Assembly: GCA_946402735.1 (NCBI GenBank)
Contig: CAMIXH010000001.1
Coordinates: forward strand, 1 to 64,000
DNA length: 64,000 nucleotides
DNA from: an uncultured Mycoplasmatota bacterium
GTDB lineage: Bacteria > Bacillota_I > Bacilli_A > RF39 > UBA660
Direction: 5' to 3'
Under the pieces are notes generated by a model. It was not told where the DNA came from. It searched no databases and saw only the letters and a program-made list of their open reading frames with translations. The translations under genes and the position numbers were made by a program. Positions 1 to 10,947 of this stretch are shown one piece after another (within the stretch, counting starts at the first letter, position 1; the number at the start of each line of letters is the position of its first letter).

Positions 1-600
1 CAACTGCAGCAGCAAATTGTTATATACCAAAGGCAAATTTAAGTGGAAAATATGTAGCAGAAGCAAAGAAAAATGCAGTTCAATGTGCAGCAGGAGGATA
101 TTGTCCAGGCGACACAGATATATATTATGGAAACACAGGTGGAAGAGTAGCATGTAGTGCTGGAACAGCAAATGCAAGTGCAGGAAGTAGCGCAGCGACT
201 GCTTGTGTAGCATGTGTAGCAGGAACATATAACTCAGGAACAGGAAATACAACATGTACTAATTGTGAAGTCGGATACTATTGTACCGGAGGAACAAATC
301 ATTCTCAGTGTTCAGCATTAGCAAGTCATTATACATCAAGTGCTGCAAAATCAACTGCAGCAGCAAATTGTTATATACCAAAGGCAAATTTAAGTGGAAA
401 ATATGTTGCAACAAAGAATTCAAATGCAGTTCAATGTGCAGCAGGAGGATATTGTCCAGGAAATACTGATATATATTATGGAAGCACAGGTGGAAGAGTA
501 GAATGCAGTGCTGGAACATATAATGGAAGTACGGGAAGTACTGCAGCAACAGCGTGTCAGGCATGTGCTTCAGGAACTTATTCAAATGCAGGAGCAACGC
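1..600 (+). repeat. 351-bp (117-codon) tandem repeat inside the Cys-rich gene
   Basis: The sequence starting CAACTGCAGCAGCAAATTG at position 1 recurs in register at 352, giving a period of 351 bp. Similarity runs for about 250 bp into the second copy and then decays. The first ~50 bases of the two copies are identical, which suggests recent duplication or gene conversion. Further copies probably lie upstream of the window. Confidence 0.85.
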
Positions 601-1631
601 AATGTGCTGATAAGTGTTCAAGTACAGGTGGATGGATTTGCGGTAATTATGGAGCATTTGGAACTTGTTCAAATATATGTGGAGGAACTCAAACACAATA
701 TAGAACATGTAAAAAGTACTCATCATTTGATTCAAACTATGAGTGTGACTCAAAAACAGAATCTAATTCTCAATCATGTGGAGGAAAAACATGTAACTAT
801 GGTTCATGGAGTTATAGTCCAAGTTGTACAGATTCTGGTGGACGAACGACTGCAACTAGAACAAGAACAGGTACTTGTGTAGCAAACTCAAATAGCAATT
901 ATTCTTGTGGTAGTGATACTCAAACAGAAACAAAATATTTTAATATACCTAGATGTTGCTCTAATACTTCAGACTGGGTATGTGGTAGTTATTATGGCTG
1001 CACTACATGCACAAAAACATGTGGTGGAGGAACTCAATCTTGCAAAAAGGATTGTACTCAAACATCAATATATGATCTAAGAGTTTGCGCGACAAAAACA
1101 TTTACAGATACAGGTATATCTTGTAACACTCAATCATGTCCAACAGGAAGTGGATGTTTCTTAAAAGGAACAAAAGTTAAAACAATATTTGGTTATAAGG
1201 ATATAGATAAAATAAAAGTTGGAGATTACGTTCTAACATTAAATGAATTTGGAAAAATTAATCAATATAAACCAGTTATTAAAACATGGATATTTGACAA
1301 TTTAAATGAAGAGTTATATACATTAACTTTTGAAGATAATAGTGTAATGCAATTAACACAAATGCATGGTGTTTATACTATAGTAAATGGTAGAGAAAAA
1401 GCAATTCATGCTAAAGACTTAAAAGTTGGAGATGTAGTATTTGATTCAAATCGTAAAATACATACAATAAAGAATATAACTCATAATCCAATAGATGAAC
1501 CAGTTTACAACTTATCAATTAAAGACAATCATAATTTCTATGTTGGTGAAAATGAAATACTTGTTCATAACATAAATGGAAACTGTGGTGCTACTGGTGC
1601 AGTAGGACATGATGAGTGTAAACTTAATTAA
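3..1631 (+). CDS. Cys-rich repeat surface protein with C-terminal Hint domain (5' partial)
   Basis: Frame 3 is open from the window edge to the TAA at 1629-1631, about 542 codons. The ORF track lists only its last 94 codons because no earlier ATG lies in frame. The first ~380 residues are Cys/Gly/Thr-rich modules (CAAGGYCPG, CSAGTYNGSTG) like those of GCC2/GCC3 or TNFR-type extracellular repeats, followed by TSP1-like stretches (WSYSPSC...TRTRTGTC). From Cys at 1155 to HN at 1566-1571 (139 codons) the protein reads as a Hint fold: N-terminal GCFLKGTKV, a block-B TQMH (TxxH), two KVGD turns and C-terminal ILVHN. The tail after HN is only 19 residues and starts with Ile, so protein splicing is unlikely but autocleavage is possible. 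Probably secreted. The Hint call is firm; the biological role is unknown. Confidence 0.85.
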   Translation, partial: TAAANCYIPKANLSGKYVAEAKKNAVQCAAGGYCPGDTDIYYGNTGGRVACSAGTANASAGSSAATACVACVAGTYNSGTGNTTCTNCEVGYYCTGGTNHSQCSALASHYTSSAAKSTAAANCYIPKANLSGKYVATKNSNAVQCAAGGYCPGNTDIYYGSTGGRVECSAGTYNGSTGSTAATACQACASGTYSNAGATQCADKCSSTGGWICGNYGAFGTCSNICGGTQTQYRTCKKYSSFDSNYECDSKTESNSQSCGGKTCNYGSWSYSPSCTDSGGRTTATRTRTGTCVANSNSNYSCGSDTQTETKYFNIPRCCSNTSDWVCGSYYGCTTCTKTCGGGTQSCKKDCTQTSIYDLRVCATKTFTDTGISCNTQSCPTGSGCFLKGTKVKTIFGYKDIDKIKVGDYVLTLNEFGKINQYKPVIKTWIFDNLNEELYTLTFEDNSVMQLTQMHGVYTIVNGREKAIHAKDLKVGDVVFDSNRKIHTIKNITHNPIDEPVYNLSIKDNHNFYVGENEILVHNINGNCGATGAVGHDECKLN

Positions 1632-1646
1632 TTATTAGGAGGAAAT

Positions 1647-2243
1647 ATGAAGAATAAAAGAATAATAATTATTATTGTAATGTGTATATTAATTTTATTT
1701 GTTGGATTCCTTGTAATTAATAGATTTGTTTTTAATGGAAATCAAAACAATACAGATAATGGTACAACTATTAAAGATTTTACATTTCATTTTCCTAATG
1801 ATATGAAATTCAAAATGGTAGATGAACATACATTTGAGTTAAAAACGAATAGTTGGACTGCAAATCTTGACATTATGTATGATGAAAGAGATTTAATACT
1901 AAGCTATCCAGGATGTACTAAAATAAGATTAACTAGTGATAATTATAAAACTGGTGAATTAAAGAAAAATGAAGGTTATGATAGAAACTATATTAGTTTT
2001 ACTTTAGTTGATGAAACAAATAATGAAAATAATGTAATTTCATATTATAGAATTGATAAACAATATATAGTTTATATAGATCTTATCAATAAAGATAATT
2101 CATTTAATGAAGAACCTTTAAAAGATATTTATAAAGCATTAGACACTGCAAAATTTAGTGGCGAAAAGAAATTTAAATATCACTCATATTTGATAAGTTT
2201 TTATCATCAATGTCATGATATTGAAAAGCTAGATAAAGAATAA
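1647..2243 (+). CDS. Membrane-anchored exported protein, unknown function
   Basis: A 198-aa protein with an ideal AGGAGG site 5-6 bases before ATG, starting 15 bases after the Hint gene, so probably co-transcribed with it. Residues ~5-28 form a single hydrophobic segment (IIIIIVMCILILFVGFLVI) preceded by KNKR, i.e. a signal anchor with an extracytoplasmic C-terminal domain. The rest is a mixed beta-rich domain (FTFHFPNDMKFKMVDEHTFELK) with no motif I recognise. The position suggests a partner of the Cys-rich/Hint protein, for example an immunity or anchoring factor, but that is inference only. Confidence 0.75.
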   Translation: MKNKRIIIIIVMCILILFVGFLVINRFVFNGNQNNTDNGTTIKDFTFHFPNDMKFKMVDEHTFELKTNSWTANLDIMYDERDLILSYPGCTKIRLTSDNYKTGELKKNEGYDRNYISFTLVDETNNENNVISYYRIDKQYIVYIDLINKDNSFNEEPLKDIYKALDTAKFSGEKKFKYHSYLISFYHQCHDIEKLDKE

Positions 2244-2270
2244 AAGTACATAGAAATATGTACTTTTTAT
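2242..2270 (+). terminator. Intrinsic terminator after the Hint operon
   Basis: An 11-bp perfect stem AAAAGTACATA/TATGTACTTTT with a GAAA loop is followed by a short T run. It starts at the stop codon of the 198-aa gene. Confidence 0.85.
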
Positions 2271-3605: not shown

Positions 3606-3634
3606 AAAAGAAATAGTTAATACTATTTCTTTTA
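3606..3634. terminator. Bidirectional terminator between convergent pdp and vanY-like genes
   Basis: A 12-bp stem AAAAGAAATAGT/ACTATTTCTTTT with a 4-base loop. The arms end in A and T runs on opposite sides, so it can serve both convergent genes. It overlaps the stop of the minus-strand gene. Confidence 0.85.
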
Positions 3635-4603
3635 TTTTTGATATTTAACTAAATATTCTTCAAATGTTATATTTTCAATATAAATCTTTGTTGCTATATC
3701 TACACCTAAATATCTATAATGCCATGGTTCATATGCAAAACCTGTTATGAATTCTTTTTTATCTGGATATCTTTCTATAAATCCATATTTATATGCATTA
3801 TCTTTTAACCATTTATATTCTTTACTTTTTTTAAATGTTGGTTGTGTTGTATTAAAGTCAATTGCAAGTCCTAATTCATGTTCTGAATGTCTTGGCTTAG
3901 CAGAATATTTTAATGCATAATCAAGCCCATTATTCTTTGTATATTTGTTAAACAAATTTGTTTGTACAGTTTTATCTCTATATGAAGAAATAACTACTAG
4001 TTTAATTCCTTCTTTTTTAGCATCATCTATCATTTGTTTTAATGGTTCATACATTTCTGATCTTACATGTTTTTTACCATTATTACTATAAGGTTTAGGT
4101 AAAGTTAACAAATTATTAAATGTAGCATCATCTGGAATTTGATTATATTTATTAACAAGAGCTGTAATAGAAGTATAATCTTCAACTACATTAATATTAG
4201 TATAGAAATCATAATCAAGCCCAATCTCAACATATAGAGTTACTTGATCAATGGTATATTCTGGATGTTTTAAATAGTATTCTTCATATCTTTCTATATT
4301 TTGAATATTAAAGTATTCGGAATTAGCAAATTCTTCAAAATGATCATATTTCCTAGAAAGTAGATAATTTTTAACATCAAGATTAGCTATTTTTTCTTCA
4401 ATCATCTCTATTACTTTTACATTGTATCCTAAACTTAATAGATCTTCTTTATATATATATTCATCATTAGTAATATTTTGATTTTGACCTTCAATATCAC
4501 TTTCTGTTTTTATTTTAGAATCAGTAACAGAAATATAAATAATCAAACTGAAAAATGCTATAAAATTAATAATAATAATTGTTAATAATACTTTTTTTAT
4601 CAT
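3632..4603 (-). CDS. D-alanyl-D-alanine carboxypeptidase, VanY/DdcB family
   Basis: A 323-aa protein with an N-terminal membrane segment (residues ~5-25) and an extracytoplasmic C-terminal peptidase domain (~170-315). Zinc-ligand motifs of the M15B family are clear: HSEHELGLAIDF (SxHxxGxAxD) and EPWHYRY (ExWH). It should trim the terminal D-Ala from peptidoglycan stem peptides, implying that the organism makes a cell wall. The region between anchor and catalytic domain (~40-165) is a family-typical linker domain. The ATG is preceded by AGGAGG on the minus strand. Confidence 0.92.
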   Translation of the reverse strand: MIKKVLLTIIIINFIAFFSLIIYISVTDSKIKTESDIEGQNQNITNDEYIYKEDLLSLGYNVKVIEMIEEKIANLDVKNYLLSRKYDHFEEFANSEYFNIQNIERYEEYYLKHPEYTIDQVTLYVEIGLDYDFYTNINVVEDYTSITALVNKYNQIPDDATFNNLLTLPKPYSNNGKKHVRSEMYEPLKQMIDDAKKEGIKLVVISSYRDKTVQTNLFNKYTKNNGLDYALKYSAKPRHSEHELGLAIDFNTTQPTFKKSKEYKWLKDNAYKYGFIERYPDKKEFITGFAYEPWHYRYLGVDIATKIYIENITFEEYLVKYQK

Positions 4604-7146: not shown

Positions 7147-7183
7147 TTGTCCTTTAGTATATACTTTTATTAGAGGAACCAAT

Positions 7184-7741
7184 ATGAAAAAAAGTATTAA
7201 ATATTTAATAATAAGTATACTTGTATTATTAGTTATAACTTTTACAGTTAGTTATGCTTACTTTGCTCCAAACTTTATAAATAATACAAAGGATACTAAA
7301 GTAAGTACTGGAGACTTAGATTTAAGTATTGATGATGAAAGCATTGATGCTGTTGAAATATCTCCAATATATGATGCAGATTATGAATTATTAGGAATTC
7401 ATAAAAGTTTCACAGTAATATCTAATAGTTCACTTAATTCATGTGTTAATTTATATATTAATGTTAGTGAAATATCTGATGAATTAAAAAGTGAATACTT
7501 TAAATACAAATTATTATATGATGGAAAAGAAATAGATGGTAATTTCTTAACAGCTAATAGTAATGAAAAGATGTTAATAGAGAAGGGACTATTCTTGGAA
7601 AGCAAAAATGAAAAGAGTTTTGATTTATATATCTGGGTAAGTTACCAAGATGATGTAGATCAATTAAGTATGTTAAATGGAAAAATCAAATCAAATATAT
7701 ATGTTGAAGGATTTGATTCTAAGAATAATACATGTCAGTAA
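7184..7741 (+). CDS. TasA/camelysin-like exported protein
   Basis: 185 aa from ATG 7184 (RBS AGAGGA). The ORF-track start at 7136 lies within the upstream terminator and is rejected. The N terminus is a hydrophobic segment ending in SYAYFAPNF, followed by STGDLDLSIDD. This matches the TasA/CalY pattern (AYF..., then an aromatic/Gly-rich (T)GxLxL strand) of secreted fibre-forming or surface proteins usually processed by a SipW-type signal peptidase. No signal peptidase gene is seen nearby. The remainder is beta-rich with no catalytic motif. The family assignment is by pattern only. Confidence 0.6.
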   Translation: MKKSIKYLIISILVLLVITFTVSYAYFAPNFINNTKDTKVSTGDLDLSIDDESIDAVEISPIYDADYELLGIHKSFTVISNSSLNSCVNLYINVSEISDELKSEYFKYKLLYDGKEIDGNFLTANSNEKMLIEKGLFLESKNEKSFDLYIWVSYQDDVDQLSMLNGKIKSNIYVEGFDSKNNTCQ

Positions 7742-7778
7742 AAAAGCATATTTTATATAAAAATTAATATGTTTTTTT
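7741..7778 (+). terminator. Intrinsic terminator after TasA-like gene
   Basis: AAAAAGCATATT pairs with AATATGTTTTTT through one G-U wobble, with a 13-base loop and a T7 run. It starts at the stop codon. Confidence 0.65.
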
Positions 7779-7818
7779 ATTGAAAAAATAATATTGTAAA
7801 TAATAAAATAAAAATGTA

Positions 7819-7847
7819 TTGACATTCATAATAATTAATGATAAAAT
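7819..7847 (+). promoter_or_regulatory. Strong promoter of the str (rpsL-rpsG-fusA) operon
   Basis: Consensus TTGACA (7819-7824), a 17-base spacer, TAAAAT (7842-7847). Transcription would start near 7854, leaving a ~90-base leader. Confidence 0.85.
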
Positions 7848-7860
7848 CAAGTAGATTTCG

Positions 7861-7921
7861 GGTTTTCACACGTGTGAAAACCTTAAAAAATGAGGGTTAC
7901 GATACACCTGGAAATGTGTAT
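7861..7921 (+). promoter_or_regulatory. Structured leader of rpsL: perfect 22-base palindrome plus a second hairpin
   Basis: GGTTTTCACAC/GTGTGAAAACC is a perfect 22-base palindrome at 7861-7882 near the predicted transcript 5' end. A second small hairpin ATACAC/GTGTAT (7902-7921) lies just before the rpsL ribosome-binding site. The first could be a dimeric-regulator site or an RNA hairpin. The second sits where S7- or S12-type autoregulation might act. Function inferred from position only. Confidence 0.55.
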
Positions 7922-7943
7922 TAAGAAAGGAGAAAATAATTGT

Positions 7944-8357
7944 ATGGCTACAGTTAATCAAAAAGTAAGAAAAGGTAGAAAAGAAAAAGTAAAGAAATCT
8001 AAGAGCCCAGCATTAAATGTTGGTTACAATTCAAAAGATAAAGTGAGAACAAATAACTCATCACCACAAAAACGTGGAGTTTGTACTCGTGTATCTACTA
8101 AGACTCCTAAAAAACCAAACTCAGCTTTAAGAAAAATCGCTAGAGTTAAGTTAAGTAACGGAATGGAAGTTACTTGCTATATTGGTGGAGAAGGACATAA
8201 CTTACAAGAACACAGCGTTGTATTAATTCGTGGTGGACGTGTTAAAGATTTAATCGGTGTTCGTTATCATATTGTACGTGGTACTTTAGATACTGCTGGT
8301 ATTGATAAGAGAAGACAAGGTAGAAGTAAATACGGAACTAAAAAACCTAAGAAATAA
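7944..8357 (+). CDS. rpsL: 30S ribosomal protein S12
   Basis: 137 aa from ATG 7944 (RBS AAAGGAG). The longer ORF from 7890 is rejected because it runs through the leader hairpin. Conserved decoding-centre segments are present: [11 protein letters not shown] and [19 protein letters not shown]. It includes the Firmicutes-type N-terminal insertion ([11 protein letters not shown]). Odd: the almost invariant Pro of the DLPGVRYH loop is Ile here ([10 protein letters not shown], codon ATC, residue 104), the site equivalent to E. coli Pro90 where changes alter streptomycin response. First gene of the str operon. Confidence 0.97.
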
Positions 8358-8388
8358 TAAATAAACTTTAGAAAGGAGAATAATAAAC

Positions 8389-8856
8389 ATGCGTAAGAGA
8401 CAAGCAATAAAGAGAGATGTATTAGCAGATCCAATATATAATTCAAAAATGATTACTAAGTTAATCAATGGTATCATGCAAGATGGTAAAAAAGGAACTG
8501 CACAAAAGATATTATATGGTGCACTTGATATAGTAAAAGAAAAGACTGGAAAAGATCCTATTGAAGTTCTAAACCAAGCATTTGAAAATATTAGACCAGC
8601 TTTAGAAATAAAAAGTAGAAGAATAGGTGGAAGCAACTATTCAGTACCAATGGAAGTTAGAGAGGATAGAGCAAACGCTTTAACTTTAAGATGGTTAATA
8701 CAATATGCTAAAAGTAGAAATGGAAAAGGAATGGCTGAAAATTTAGCCGCTGAAATCATCGATGCTTCTAATGGCGTTGGTGGAGCAGTTAAGAAACGTG
8801 AAGATACTCATAAGATGGCAGAAGCAAATAAAGCATATGCTCATTATAGATGGTAA
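8389..8856 (+). CDS. rpsG: 30S ribosomal protein S7
   Basis: 155 aa, the normal length. Start [11 protein letters not shown] behind GAAAGGAG. It has the S7 hallmarks [19 protein letters not shown] and [12 protein letters not shown] and ends in the typical AHYRW. It binds the 3' major domain of 16S rRNA and nucleates head assembly. It lies 31 bases after rpsL in the str operon. Confidence 0.97.
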
Positions 8857-8871
8857 GAAGGGAGAGATATT

Positions 8872-10947
8872 ATGGCGCGTGATGTGTCTATCGATAAAAC
8901 ACGTAATATAGGTATTATGGCTCACATTGATGCTGGTAAAACAACAACAACTGAGAGAATCTTATACCTAGGTGGAAATATCCATAAGATTGGTGAAACT
9001 CACGATGGTGAATCACAAATGGATTGGATGGACCAAGAAAAAGAAAGAGGTATAACAATTACTAGTGCTGCAACTACTGTACACTGGAAAGGTTATAGAC
9101 TTAATATTATAGATACTCCAGGACACGTAGACTTCACAATTGAAGTTGCTCGTAGTTTAAGAGTTTTAGATGGTGCTATTGCATTAATCGATGCTCAAGC
9201 TGGAGTAGAAACTCAAACTGAACAAGTTTGGAGACAAGCAAATGATTATAAAGTTCCAAGAATGATTTGCGCTAACAAGATGGAAAAAATAGGAGCAGAT
9301 TTCTATTATTCAATGGATTCTATTCATAATAGACTTGCTAATAATGCTGAACCTATCATTTTACCAATCGGAGCAGAAGATCATTATACTGGATATGTTG
9401 ATTTAGTTACAATGAAAGCATATGAGTATGATGGAACTGAAGCACAAGAATTAAAAGAAATTGAAATTCCTGCTGATATGAAAGCAAAAGCAGAAGAATA
9501 TAGAGGAAAATTAATCGAAGCTGTTGCTGATTATAGTGATGAATTAATGGAAAAATACCTAGAAGGTGAAGAAATTAGTGAAGAACTATTAAAGAAAGCA
9601 ATTAGAACAGCTACTATCGATGTTAAATTCTTCCCAGTATTATGTGCTGATGCACTAGGAGATAAAGGAACTAGAACTTTACTAGATGCTGTTTTAGATT
9701 ATTTACCAGCTCCAACAGACATTGCTGCTGTTAAAGGTGTTGATATGAATGACAAAGAAGTTGAAAGAAAAGCTAGTGACAATGAACCATTCGCAGCTTT
9801 AGCATTTAAAGTTATGAATGACCCATTTGTTGGAAACTTAACATTCTTCCGTGTATATTCTGGTGTATTAAAAAGTGGTAGTTACGTAATGAACTCAACT
9901 AACGGTGAAAAAGAAAGAATCGGACGTATTCTTCAAATGCATGCTAATCAAAGAAAAGAAATTCAAGAAGTATACGCTGGTGAAATTGCTGCTGCTGTAG
10001 GTCTTAAAGATACTACAACAGGAGATACTCTTTGTGATGAAAAAGCACAAGTTATTTTAGAAAAGATGGTATTCCCAGAACCAGTTATTGAACTTGCTAT
10101 TGAACCTGCAAGTAAAGCTGATCAAGAAAAGATGAGTATCGCTCTTCAAAAACTTGCTAAAGAAGACCCATCATTTAGAGCAAAAACTGATCATGAAACT
10201 GGTCAAACTATTATCGCTGGTATGGGTGAACTTCACTTAGACGTTCTAGTAGATAGAATGAAAAGAGAATTCGGCGTTGAAGCTAATGTTGGTAAACCAC
10301 AAGTTGCTTATAGAGAAACATTAAAACAAACTGCTGAATGTGAAGGTAAATACATTAAACAATCAGGTGGACGTGGACAATACGGACATGTATGGGTTAA
10401 ATTTGAACCTAATAAAGATAAAGGATATGAATTCGTTGATGAAGTTGTTGGTGGAGTTGTTCCTCGTGAATATATTCCAGTTGTAGACAAAGGACTTCAA
10501 GAAGCACTTGCTGGTGGTGTACTAGCAGGATATCCTATGATTGATGTTAAGTGTACATTATTTGATGGTTCATACCATGATGTAGACTCAAACGAAATGG
10601 CATTCAAGATTGCTGCTTCTATGGCTTTAAAAGAAGCTAAGAATAAATGTAATCCATGTATTCTAGAACCAATTATGAATGTTGAAGTAAGAGTTCCAGA
10701 AGAATTCATGGGAACTGTTATGGGAGACTTAACAGGAAGAAGAGGTAGACCTCTTGGAAATGAAAGTATCGGTAAAGATATTGCTATTAGAGCAATGGTA
10801 CCACTTTCAGAAATGTTTGGTTATATGACTGTTCTTAGAAGTAACACTCAAGGACGTGGAACTTATCAAATGATCTTTGATCATTATGAAGAAGTACCAA
10901 AGAGTATAGCTGAAGAAATTATTAAGAAAAATGGTGTACAACAATAA
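8872..10947 (+). CDS. fusA: Elongation factor G
   Basis: 691 aa. G domain motifs: AHIDAGKTT (G1), [11 protein letters not shown] (G2), DTPGHVDF (G3), NKME (G4, where NKMD is usual). Domains II to V follow and end normally ([28 protein letters not shown]). It catalyses GTP-dependent ribosomal translocation. It starts 15 bases after rpsG behind AAGGGAG. Standard position in the str operon. Confidence 0.98.

What the first reader, a model, noticed from the sequence alone, without database searches (positions are those of the whole stretch)
3..1631. Cys-rich repeat protein ending in a Hint domain, with no toxin behind it
Seen: 139 codons from GCFLKGTKV to VHN with a TxxH block, fused to extracellular Cys-rich modules. 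Known: bacterial Hint domains autocleave and usually release a C-terminal toxin. Here only 19 residues follow HN and the +1 residue is Ile, so splicing is unlikely. Inference: the Hint could cleave off the tail or attach the repeat region to another molecule, hedgehog-style, giving a self-processing surface protein. The partner gene at 1647 may be functionally linked.
Basis: partly seen in the sequence, partly recalled or inferred. Interest (0 to 1): 0.6.

Follow-up and report, generated by a model that had tools for sequence, protein, structure and literature searches.

The report
Surface protein with toxin-free self-cutting end
A large cysteine-rich surface protein of an uncultured Bacilli bacterium ends in an intact self-cleaving (intein-like) domain that has no toxin behind it, and many relatives carry the same toxin-free ending on pilin-like and other surface proteins, so the domain probably trims or attaches surface proteins rather than releasing a weapon.

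Summary
Window 3-1631 is the 3' end of a gene cut by the contig edge. It encodes 384 residues of Cys-rich modules, a complete A-type bacterial intein-like (BIL) Hint domain (Cys385-Asn523, all catalytic blocks present) and a 19-residue tail with Ile at +1. The closest solved relative is C. thermocellum BIL (2lwy).

The missing toxin is not a quirk of this gene. Among 103 related Hint domains, tails after His-Asn are bimodal: 1-34 or 88-170 residues, with two exceptions. Twenty short-tail Hints come from 15 genomes of uncultured Bacilli, on prepilins, a Tad-pilus operon protein, TasA-like and Cys-rich proteins. Catalytic residues are nearly invariant and Hint dN/dS is low (0.06-0.47), so activity appears selected without any toxin.

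The partner gene at 1647 is operonic, a membrane-anchored PsbP/DcrB-fold protein, and sits next to a Hint gene in three genomes.

Best explanation: an autoprocessing domain that removes itself and the tail from the exported surface protein, leaving a C-terminal Gly384. Whether the thioester is hydrolysed, ligated to the tail or passed to another molecule (hedgehog-style) is open. "Splicing unlikely because +1 is Ile" is too strong: A-type BILs can splice without a +1 nucleophile. New variant of a known kind.

The parts
3..620 (+). Cys-rich repeat modules (two copies of a ~117-aa unit, 'CYIPKANLSGKYVA..QCAAGGYCPG.TDIYYG.TGGR'), 5' truncated by the contig start
   Evidence: Direct repeat 1-230 / 352-581, 85%; related repeats elsewhere in the genome; Pfam only weak NCD3G/Ephrin_rec_like matches
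603..1151 (+). second Cys-rich part resembling thrombospondin type 1 repeats
   Evidence: sub-threshold PF19030 TSP1_ADAMTS E 0.027; CSxxCGGTQ..C pattern read directly
1155..1571 (+). A-type BIL Hint domain, Cys385-Asn523
   Evidence: PF07591 E 1.5e-17; profile of ten relatives vs 2lwy E 3.3e-33 over the full length; catalytic residues
1155..1157 (+). Cys385, Hint residue 1 (predicted N-S acyl shift at Gly384-Cys385)
   Evidence: invariant in 101/101 aligned Hints
1356..1367 (+). block B TQMH (Thr452, His455)
   Evidence: Thr 26/27, His 27/27 in short-tail Hints
1566..1571 (+). His522-Asn523, predicted C-terminal cleavage site
   Evidence: His 27/27, Asn 25/27 in short-tail Hints
1572..1628 (+). 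19-residue C-terminal tail INGNCGATGAVGHDECKLN
   Evidence: tail-length survey
1637..1642 (+). AGGAGG ribosome-binding site of the partner gene, in a 15-bp intergenic gap
   Evidence: sequence read directly
1647..2243 (+). partner gene: N-terminal transmembrane helix + PsbP/DcrB-like domain, 198 aa
   Evidence: AlphaFold model pLDDT 81.5, Foldseek best hits PsbP E 1.5e-4 to 9e-4; homologues next to Hint genes in G017 and G425
2242..2267 (+). 10-bp perfect hairpin followed by a T-rich run, terminator-like end of the two-gene unit
   Evidence: sequence read directly; fold z-score -4.8; not listed by the GC-based scan

Best explanation
The gene encodes a large exported Cys-rich surface protein whose C-terminus is a functional, toxin-free A-type BIL (Hint) autoprocessing domain. 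After folding, Cys385 attacks the Gly384 carbonyl (N-S acyl shift) and Asn523 cyclises. This cuts the Hint away from both sides, so the mature surface protein ends at Gly384 and the 19-residue tail is lost or, in a minority, ligated to Gly384 by its free amino group. The job is maturation of the surface protein itself, not toxin release. The operonic membrane-anchored PsbP-fold partner probably assists or receives the same protein. Shown: domain, catalytic residues, lack of a toxin across the clade, purifying selection, operon-like arrangement. Inferred: that cleavage happens, where it happens, export of this protein, and the partner's role.
For: PT-HINT and Intein_splicing over cut-off; full-length profile match to the solved A-type BIL 2lwy, E 3.3e-33. 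Tail lengths of 103 related Hints are bimodal, 1-34 versus 88-170 aa, apart from one contig-cut 53 and one internal Hint at 628. Short-tail Hints keep Cys1 and block-B His (27/27), penultimate His (27/27) and Asn (25/27). dN/dS of the Hint is 0.06-0.47 in six pairs; tails about 0.65-0.71 in the two pairs where it can be measured. The window Hint lies in a supported clade (100/97) of ten short-tail Hints from the same bacterial family. Carriers are surface or pilus proteins: prepilin N_methyl PF07963 and a gene in front of RcpC/CpaB and T2SSE. Biochemistry of A-type BILs: cleavage dominates, some splicing (PMC4031507; PMC7664689). Partner conserved in three loci.
Against: No processing has been demonstrated for any protein of this clade. 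The 5' end of the window gene, hence its export signal, is missing from the assembly; export is inferred from relatives (Sec signal in G017, prepilin or TM N-termini in others) and from the Cys-rich modules. The partner is found in only 3 of about 17 genomes with such Hint loci, and its family is common without Hint genes.
Confidence: 0.66

Rival explanations
1. Hedgehog-style attachment: the thioester at Gly384 is captured by a nucleophile on another molecule (cell-wall amine, teichoic-acid hydroxyl, a lipid, or the partner protein), anchoring the surface protein covalently.
For: The window protein and all relatives surveyed lack an LPXTG motif, although sortases are common in the lineage (five in the own genome), so another anchor is possible. 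A sulfatase-fold (LtaS-type) gene is directly next to the Hint gene in G349, G348, G014 and L100, with only 2-4 such genes per genome. Tiny variable tails leave the thioester free once the tail is gone. A divergent HN-less Hint-like domain sits on a prepilin of the same genome.
Against: His-Asn is retained, which a pure hedgehog mechanism does not need. No adduct-recognition region follows the Hint. The sulfatase neighbour is confined to one subgroup and is not seen next to the window gene. Many members already have an N-terminal membrane helix or prepilin leader.
Confidence: 0.2
2. cis-splicing: the Hint excises itself and joins the 19-residue tail to the Cys-rich body, so the tail is the real C-terminus of the mature protein.
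For: A-type BILs can splice without a +1 nucleophile (PMC4031507). The window tail and the G175/G294 tails carry 2-4 Cys and sit behind Cys-rich bodies; one tail is nearly identical between two species.
Against: Tails are as short as 1-2 residues in other members, are not conserved between genera, and have dN/dS about 0.7. Two equally Cys-rich relatives (G017, G413) have Cys-free tails.
Confidence: 0.15
3. Decayed polymorphic toxin: a PT-HINT toxin protein that lost its C-terminal toxin, with the partner gene as leftover immunity gene.
For: PT-HINT is usually followed by a toxin: 74 of 101 aligned relatives have tails over 30 aa, nearly all 88-170. The partner's fold is shared with T6SS immunity proteins Tsi3 and TplEi and with Eag-type chaperones of Rhs effectors.
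Against: Short tails are the rule in a clade from many genomes, with intact catalytic residues and low dN/dS. N-parts are pilin-like or other surface proteins rather than RHS/FHA scaffolds. Only 15 bp lie between the Hint gene and the partner gene. The best fold hits of the partner are PsbP, at modest TM-scores.
Confidence: 0.1
4. Inactive structural cap: the Hint no longer cleaves and serves as a binding or capping domain.
For: No enzymatic data exist for the clade.
Against: Cys1, TxxH and His-Asn are invariant or nearly so although members are only 32-53% identical to the window Hint.
Confidence: 0.08

Closest known systems
A-type bacterial intein-like (BIL) domains, e.g. Clostridium thermocellum BIL (PDB 2lwy; Amitai 2003, Dassa 2004, Aranko 2013 as cited in PMC4031507 and PMC7664689)
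   Same: Full-length sequence match, Cys1, TxxH, block F, terminal His-Asn, no +1 nucleophile; sits in variable, probably extracellular proteins
   Different: Here the domain is at the very C-terminus with a tail of a few to 27 residues, and the carriers in the same clade include prepilins and a Tad-operon protein
Pretoxin-HINT (PF07591) in polymorphic toxins / RHS / CDI / MafB proteins
   Same: Same Pfam family over cut-off; G016 and the Bacteroidota short-tail relatives are RHS-type
   Different: No C-terminal toxin; carriers of the Bacilli clade are pilin-like, TasA-like, Ig-like or Cys-rich; separate supported clade in the tree
Hedgehog Hog domain (PF01079; PDB 1at0)
   Same: C-terminal Hint on a secreted N-part; weak profile match
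   Different: Hog lacks the Asn end and carries a sterol-recognition region; neither holds here
Secreted bacterial proteins with a divergent C-terminal Hint (Buerglin 2008, PMC2362128; Dassa and Pietrokovski)
   Same: Precedent for a Hint at the C-terminus of exported bacterial proteins with conserved upstream Cys
   Different: That subgroup is described as divergent from BIL and Hog; the window Hint is a plain A-type BIL
BIL-containing scaffoldin ScaO of Clostridium clariflavum (PMC4582956)
   Same: BIL in a modular protein with adhesion-related domains
   Different: Cohesin/dockerin protein without a signal peptide; what follows the BIL is not described in the passages read

Membership tests
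A-type BIL | Hint fold/profile | tested here: met
   PF07591 E 1.5e-17; 2lwy profile match E 3.3e-33 full length
A-type BIL | N-terminal Cys/Ser nucleophile and block-B TxxH | tested here: met
   Cys385, T452QMH455
A-type BIL | C-terminal His-Asn | tested here: met
   His522-Asn523
A-type BIL | no Cys/Ser/Thr at +1 | tested here: met
   Ile524
A-type BIL | self-cleavage / partial splicing | not testable with these tools
   needs expression and mass spectrometry
PT-HINT polymorphic toxin | toxin domain C-terminal to the Hint | tested here: not met
   19-aa tail; toxin-type relatives have 88-170 aa
PT-HINT polymorphic toxin | RHS/FHA/LXG-type scaffold | tested here: inconclusive
   none in the 384 residues present; 5' part of the gene missing
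PT-HINT polymorphic toxin | immunity gene directly downstream | tested here: inconclusive
   partner present; PsbP-like fold with weaker hits to Tsi3 and Eag; family also occurs away from Hint genes
Hedgehog Hog domain | no terminal Asn; sterol/adduct-recognition region after the Hint | tested here: not met
   His-Asn present, only 19 aa follow
Hedgehog Hog domain | ester transfer of the N-part to an alcohol | not testable with these tools
   needs biochemistry
Canonical intein | +1 Cys/Ser/Thr and insertion in a conserved enzyme | tested here: not met
   Ile +1; variable Cys-rich repeat protein

The most novel reading that the evidence does not exclude
A lineage of small-genome uncultured Bacilli uses toxin-free Hint domains as a C-terminal maturation or anchoring device for pilins and other surface proteins: an autocatalytic counterpart of sortase or hedgehog processing, in which the Gly thioester is passed to an envelope nucleophile (possibly made or presented by the neighbouring LtaS-fold enzyme or the PsbP-fold partner).
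Probability: 0.17. Interest if true: 0.8.

Novelty: new variant of a known kind. Interest (0 to 1): 0.5.

Why it matters
Bacterial Hint domains are mostly discussed as toxin-release devices. Here is a well-delimited clade with intact catalytic residues and nothing to release, on pilins and surface proteins, so it gives a clean set of natural substrates for asking what BIL domains do other than free a toxin. If the thioester is transferred, it would be a bacterial analogue of hedgehog processing; if only hydrolysed, it would be an autocatalytic type of surface-protein maturation.

Tried and rejected
Single-sequence scan of genome contigs gave nothing; the alignment scan was needed. Joining the window gene to the contig-C3 prepilin ORF was considered and dropped: C3 ends in a different repeat subtype and shares its last 13 bases with the start of C11, whereas its longest exact match to C1 is 44 bp and not at the ends, so C3-C11 is the likelier pair and the window's 5' end stays unknown. 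'The Hint replaces a missing sortase system' was rejected: sortase is in 72 of 100 genomes searched, five copies in the own genome. phmmer between the window partner and the G017 partner found nothing; blastp and alignment did, weakly. Paper searches for prepilin plus intein, pretoxin HINT, and Hint covalent attachment gave no report of this architecture; only open-access papers were covered.

Full report
CHECK OF THE OBSERVATION. The open frame 3-1631 is real (542 codons) and far longer than chance allows. Its last third is a Hint domain: PF07591 PT-HINT E 1.5e-17 and PF14890, both over their cut-offs; phmmer finds the solved C. thermocellum BIL 2lwy at 1.7e-11, and a ten-member profile matches 2lwy end to end at 3.3e-33. 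Catalytic elements: Cys385 (Gly at -1), T452QMH455, block F, His522-Asn523, then 19 residues starting with Ile. The window begins at base 1 of contig C1 of a 1.28-Mb, 15-contig, 85%-complete genome, inside a 230-bp direct repeat of this gene, so the 5' part is missing, probably through an assembly break.

THE CYS-RICH PART. Residues 1-206 are two ~117-residue repeats with many Cys; related repeats (43-71% identity) occur on C3, C11 and C2 of the same genome, on C3 behind a prepilin-type leader (GFTLIEL). Residues 201-383 resemble thrombospondin type 1 repeats but stay below threshold. There are 39 Cys in the N-part and one in the Hint.

NO TOXIN, AND NOT ONLY HERE. Hint homologues were gathered from the genus, family and class and from GTDB genomes, and the length of protein after the Hint was measured. 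Of 103 domains, tails are 1-34 residues or 88-170, with one contig-cut 53 and one internal Hint (628). The long class is Paenibacillus, Brevibacillus, Bacteroidota and others; in the class search further toxin-type tails of 82-111 aa appear. Twenty of the 27 domains with tails of 30 or less come from 15 genomes of uncultured Bacilli (counting the window); the rest are three Bacteroidota RHS proteins ending LVHNK, two Planctomycetota, one other Bacillota and one Cohnella copy nested among long-tail relatives, probably a truncated one. In the tree the window falls in a supported ten-member clade (100/97) of short-tail Hints from its own family; short-tail Hints as a whole are strongly clustered but are not shown to be one clade. 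The sample is biased toward relatives of the query.

CARRIERS. N-termini of the Bacilli carriers are diverse: prepilin leaders (G014, G349, G175, G294, the last two with tandem paralogues); a DUF5411 protein in front of RcpC/CpaB and a T2SSE ATPase, a Tad-pilus-like operon (G439); TasA/camelysin-like leaders, by eye (G284, L100, L106, L112); Sec signal plus Listeria-Bacteroides repeats (G017); a 1.8-kaa Cys-rich protein (G413). None has LPXTG. In the window's subclade the Hint is preceded by a Gly/Ser/Pro linker, ending GG|C in four of five and GSG|C in the window.

SELECTION. In 27 short-tail Hints Cys1 and block-B His are 27/27, Thr 26/27, penultimate His 27/27, Asn 25/27 (the two planctomycete members end in HD). 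Hint dN/dS in six pairs is 0.06-0.47, tails about 0.65-0.71 in two measurable pairs. In the G175 paralogues the Hint is homogenised (dS 0.11) while the flanks are not (0.67 and 1.19), and in L100 the Hint is the more divergent part (0.74 against 0.14), so Hint cassettes seem to recombine. Catalysis is kept although tails vary freely.

PARTNER GENE. 1647-2243 starts 15 bp after the stop with AGGAGG and ends in a terminator-like hairpin (2242-2267, fold z -4.8; the GC-based scan did not list it). It is homologous to genes directly downstream of the Hint genes of G425 (blastp 4e-13) and G017 (about 1e-5) in a comparison against five sequences. Model: one TM helix and a PsbP-like domain (pLDDT 81.5); Foldseek: PsbP first, then Tsi3, Eag-type chaperones and DcrB, at target-normalised TM 0.4-0.6. 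The broader family is common without Hints, so linkage is suggestive, not proven.

OTHER LINKED GENE. A sulfatase-fold (LtaS-type, PF00884) gene abuts or closely neighbours the Hint gene in G349, G348, G014 and L100; these genomes hold 2-4 copies. These Hints fall in one weakly supported subgroup, so the count is not independent. It is not beside the window gene (upstream side unknown).

MECHANISM. Step 1, N-S acyl shift at Gly384-Cys385, and step 2, Asn523 cyclisation, follow from established A-type BIL chemistry (PMC4031507; PMC7664689). The outcome of the thioester is open: hydrolysis (most likely), ligation to the tail, or transfer. Hedgehog-style transfer is possible but not favoured, given the kept His-Asn and the lack of a recognition region.

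NOVELTY. The domain class is known, and C-terminal Hints in secreted bacterial proteins have precedent (PMC2362128). The toxin-free A-type BIL on pilins and surface proteins as a recurrent theme of one lineage was not found in the papers searched, which cover open-access texts only.

Noticed in passing
L029 (G000:C5:30000-45169) 7188-8591, own genome: A second self-processing candidate in the same genome: a prepilin (PF07963 N_methyl) fused to a divergent Hint-like domain that keeps Cys1 and block-B His but lacks the His-Asn end and continues ~70 residues.
   Followed up: partly
L032 (G025:C9) 7162-9570; also G004, G006, G007 and about ten genomes of family f7: HN-less, hedgehog-like Hint on ~800-1150-aa surface proteins followed by a ~100-150-aa C-terminal part; the AlphaFold model of the G025 Hint part matches BIL, inteins and hedgehog 1at0 (E 6e-8 to 2e-7). 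In G025 it sits in an operon with a TasA-like protein, an S26-type signal peptidase and DUF5305. May be an undescribed Hog-like bacterial family.
   Followed up: partly
L113, L142, L163 (Bacteroidota): RHS-type proteins that end one residue after the Hint (LVHNK*), two of them (L113, L142) followed by homologous 120-125-aa membrane proteins (48% identity), the third by a similar-sized one.
   Followed up: partly
L058, L059 (G175, G294): Five tandem prepilin-Hint paralogues have NPxTG immediately before Cys1, a sortase-like motif exactly at the predicted Hint cleavage site.
   Followed up: no
L050 (G221:C112): A 592-aa frame whose ends look, by eye, like a radical SAM QueE-type enzyme is interrupted by a Hint/intein-like insert (CFHENTKIQ...WVHN|C), probably an ordinary intein.
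   Followed up: no
window 3632-4603; G000:C1:40144-40512: VanY-like D,D-carboxypeptidase (by eye) and one of five sortase matches of the genome; consistent with a walled cell.
   Followed up: no
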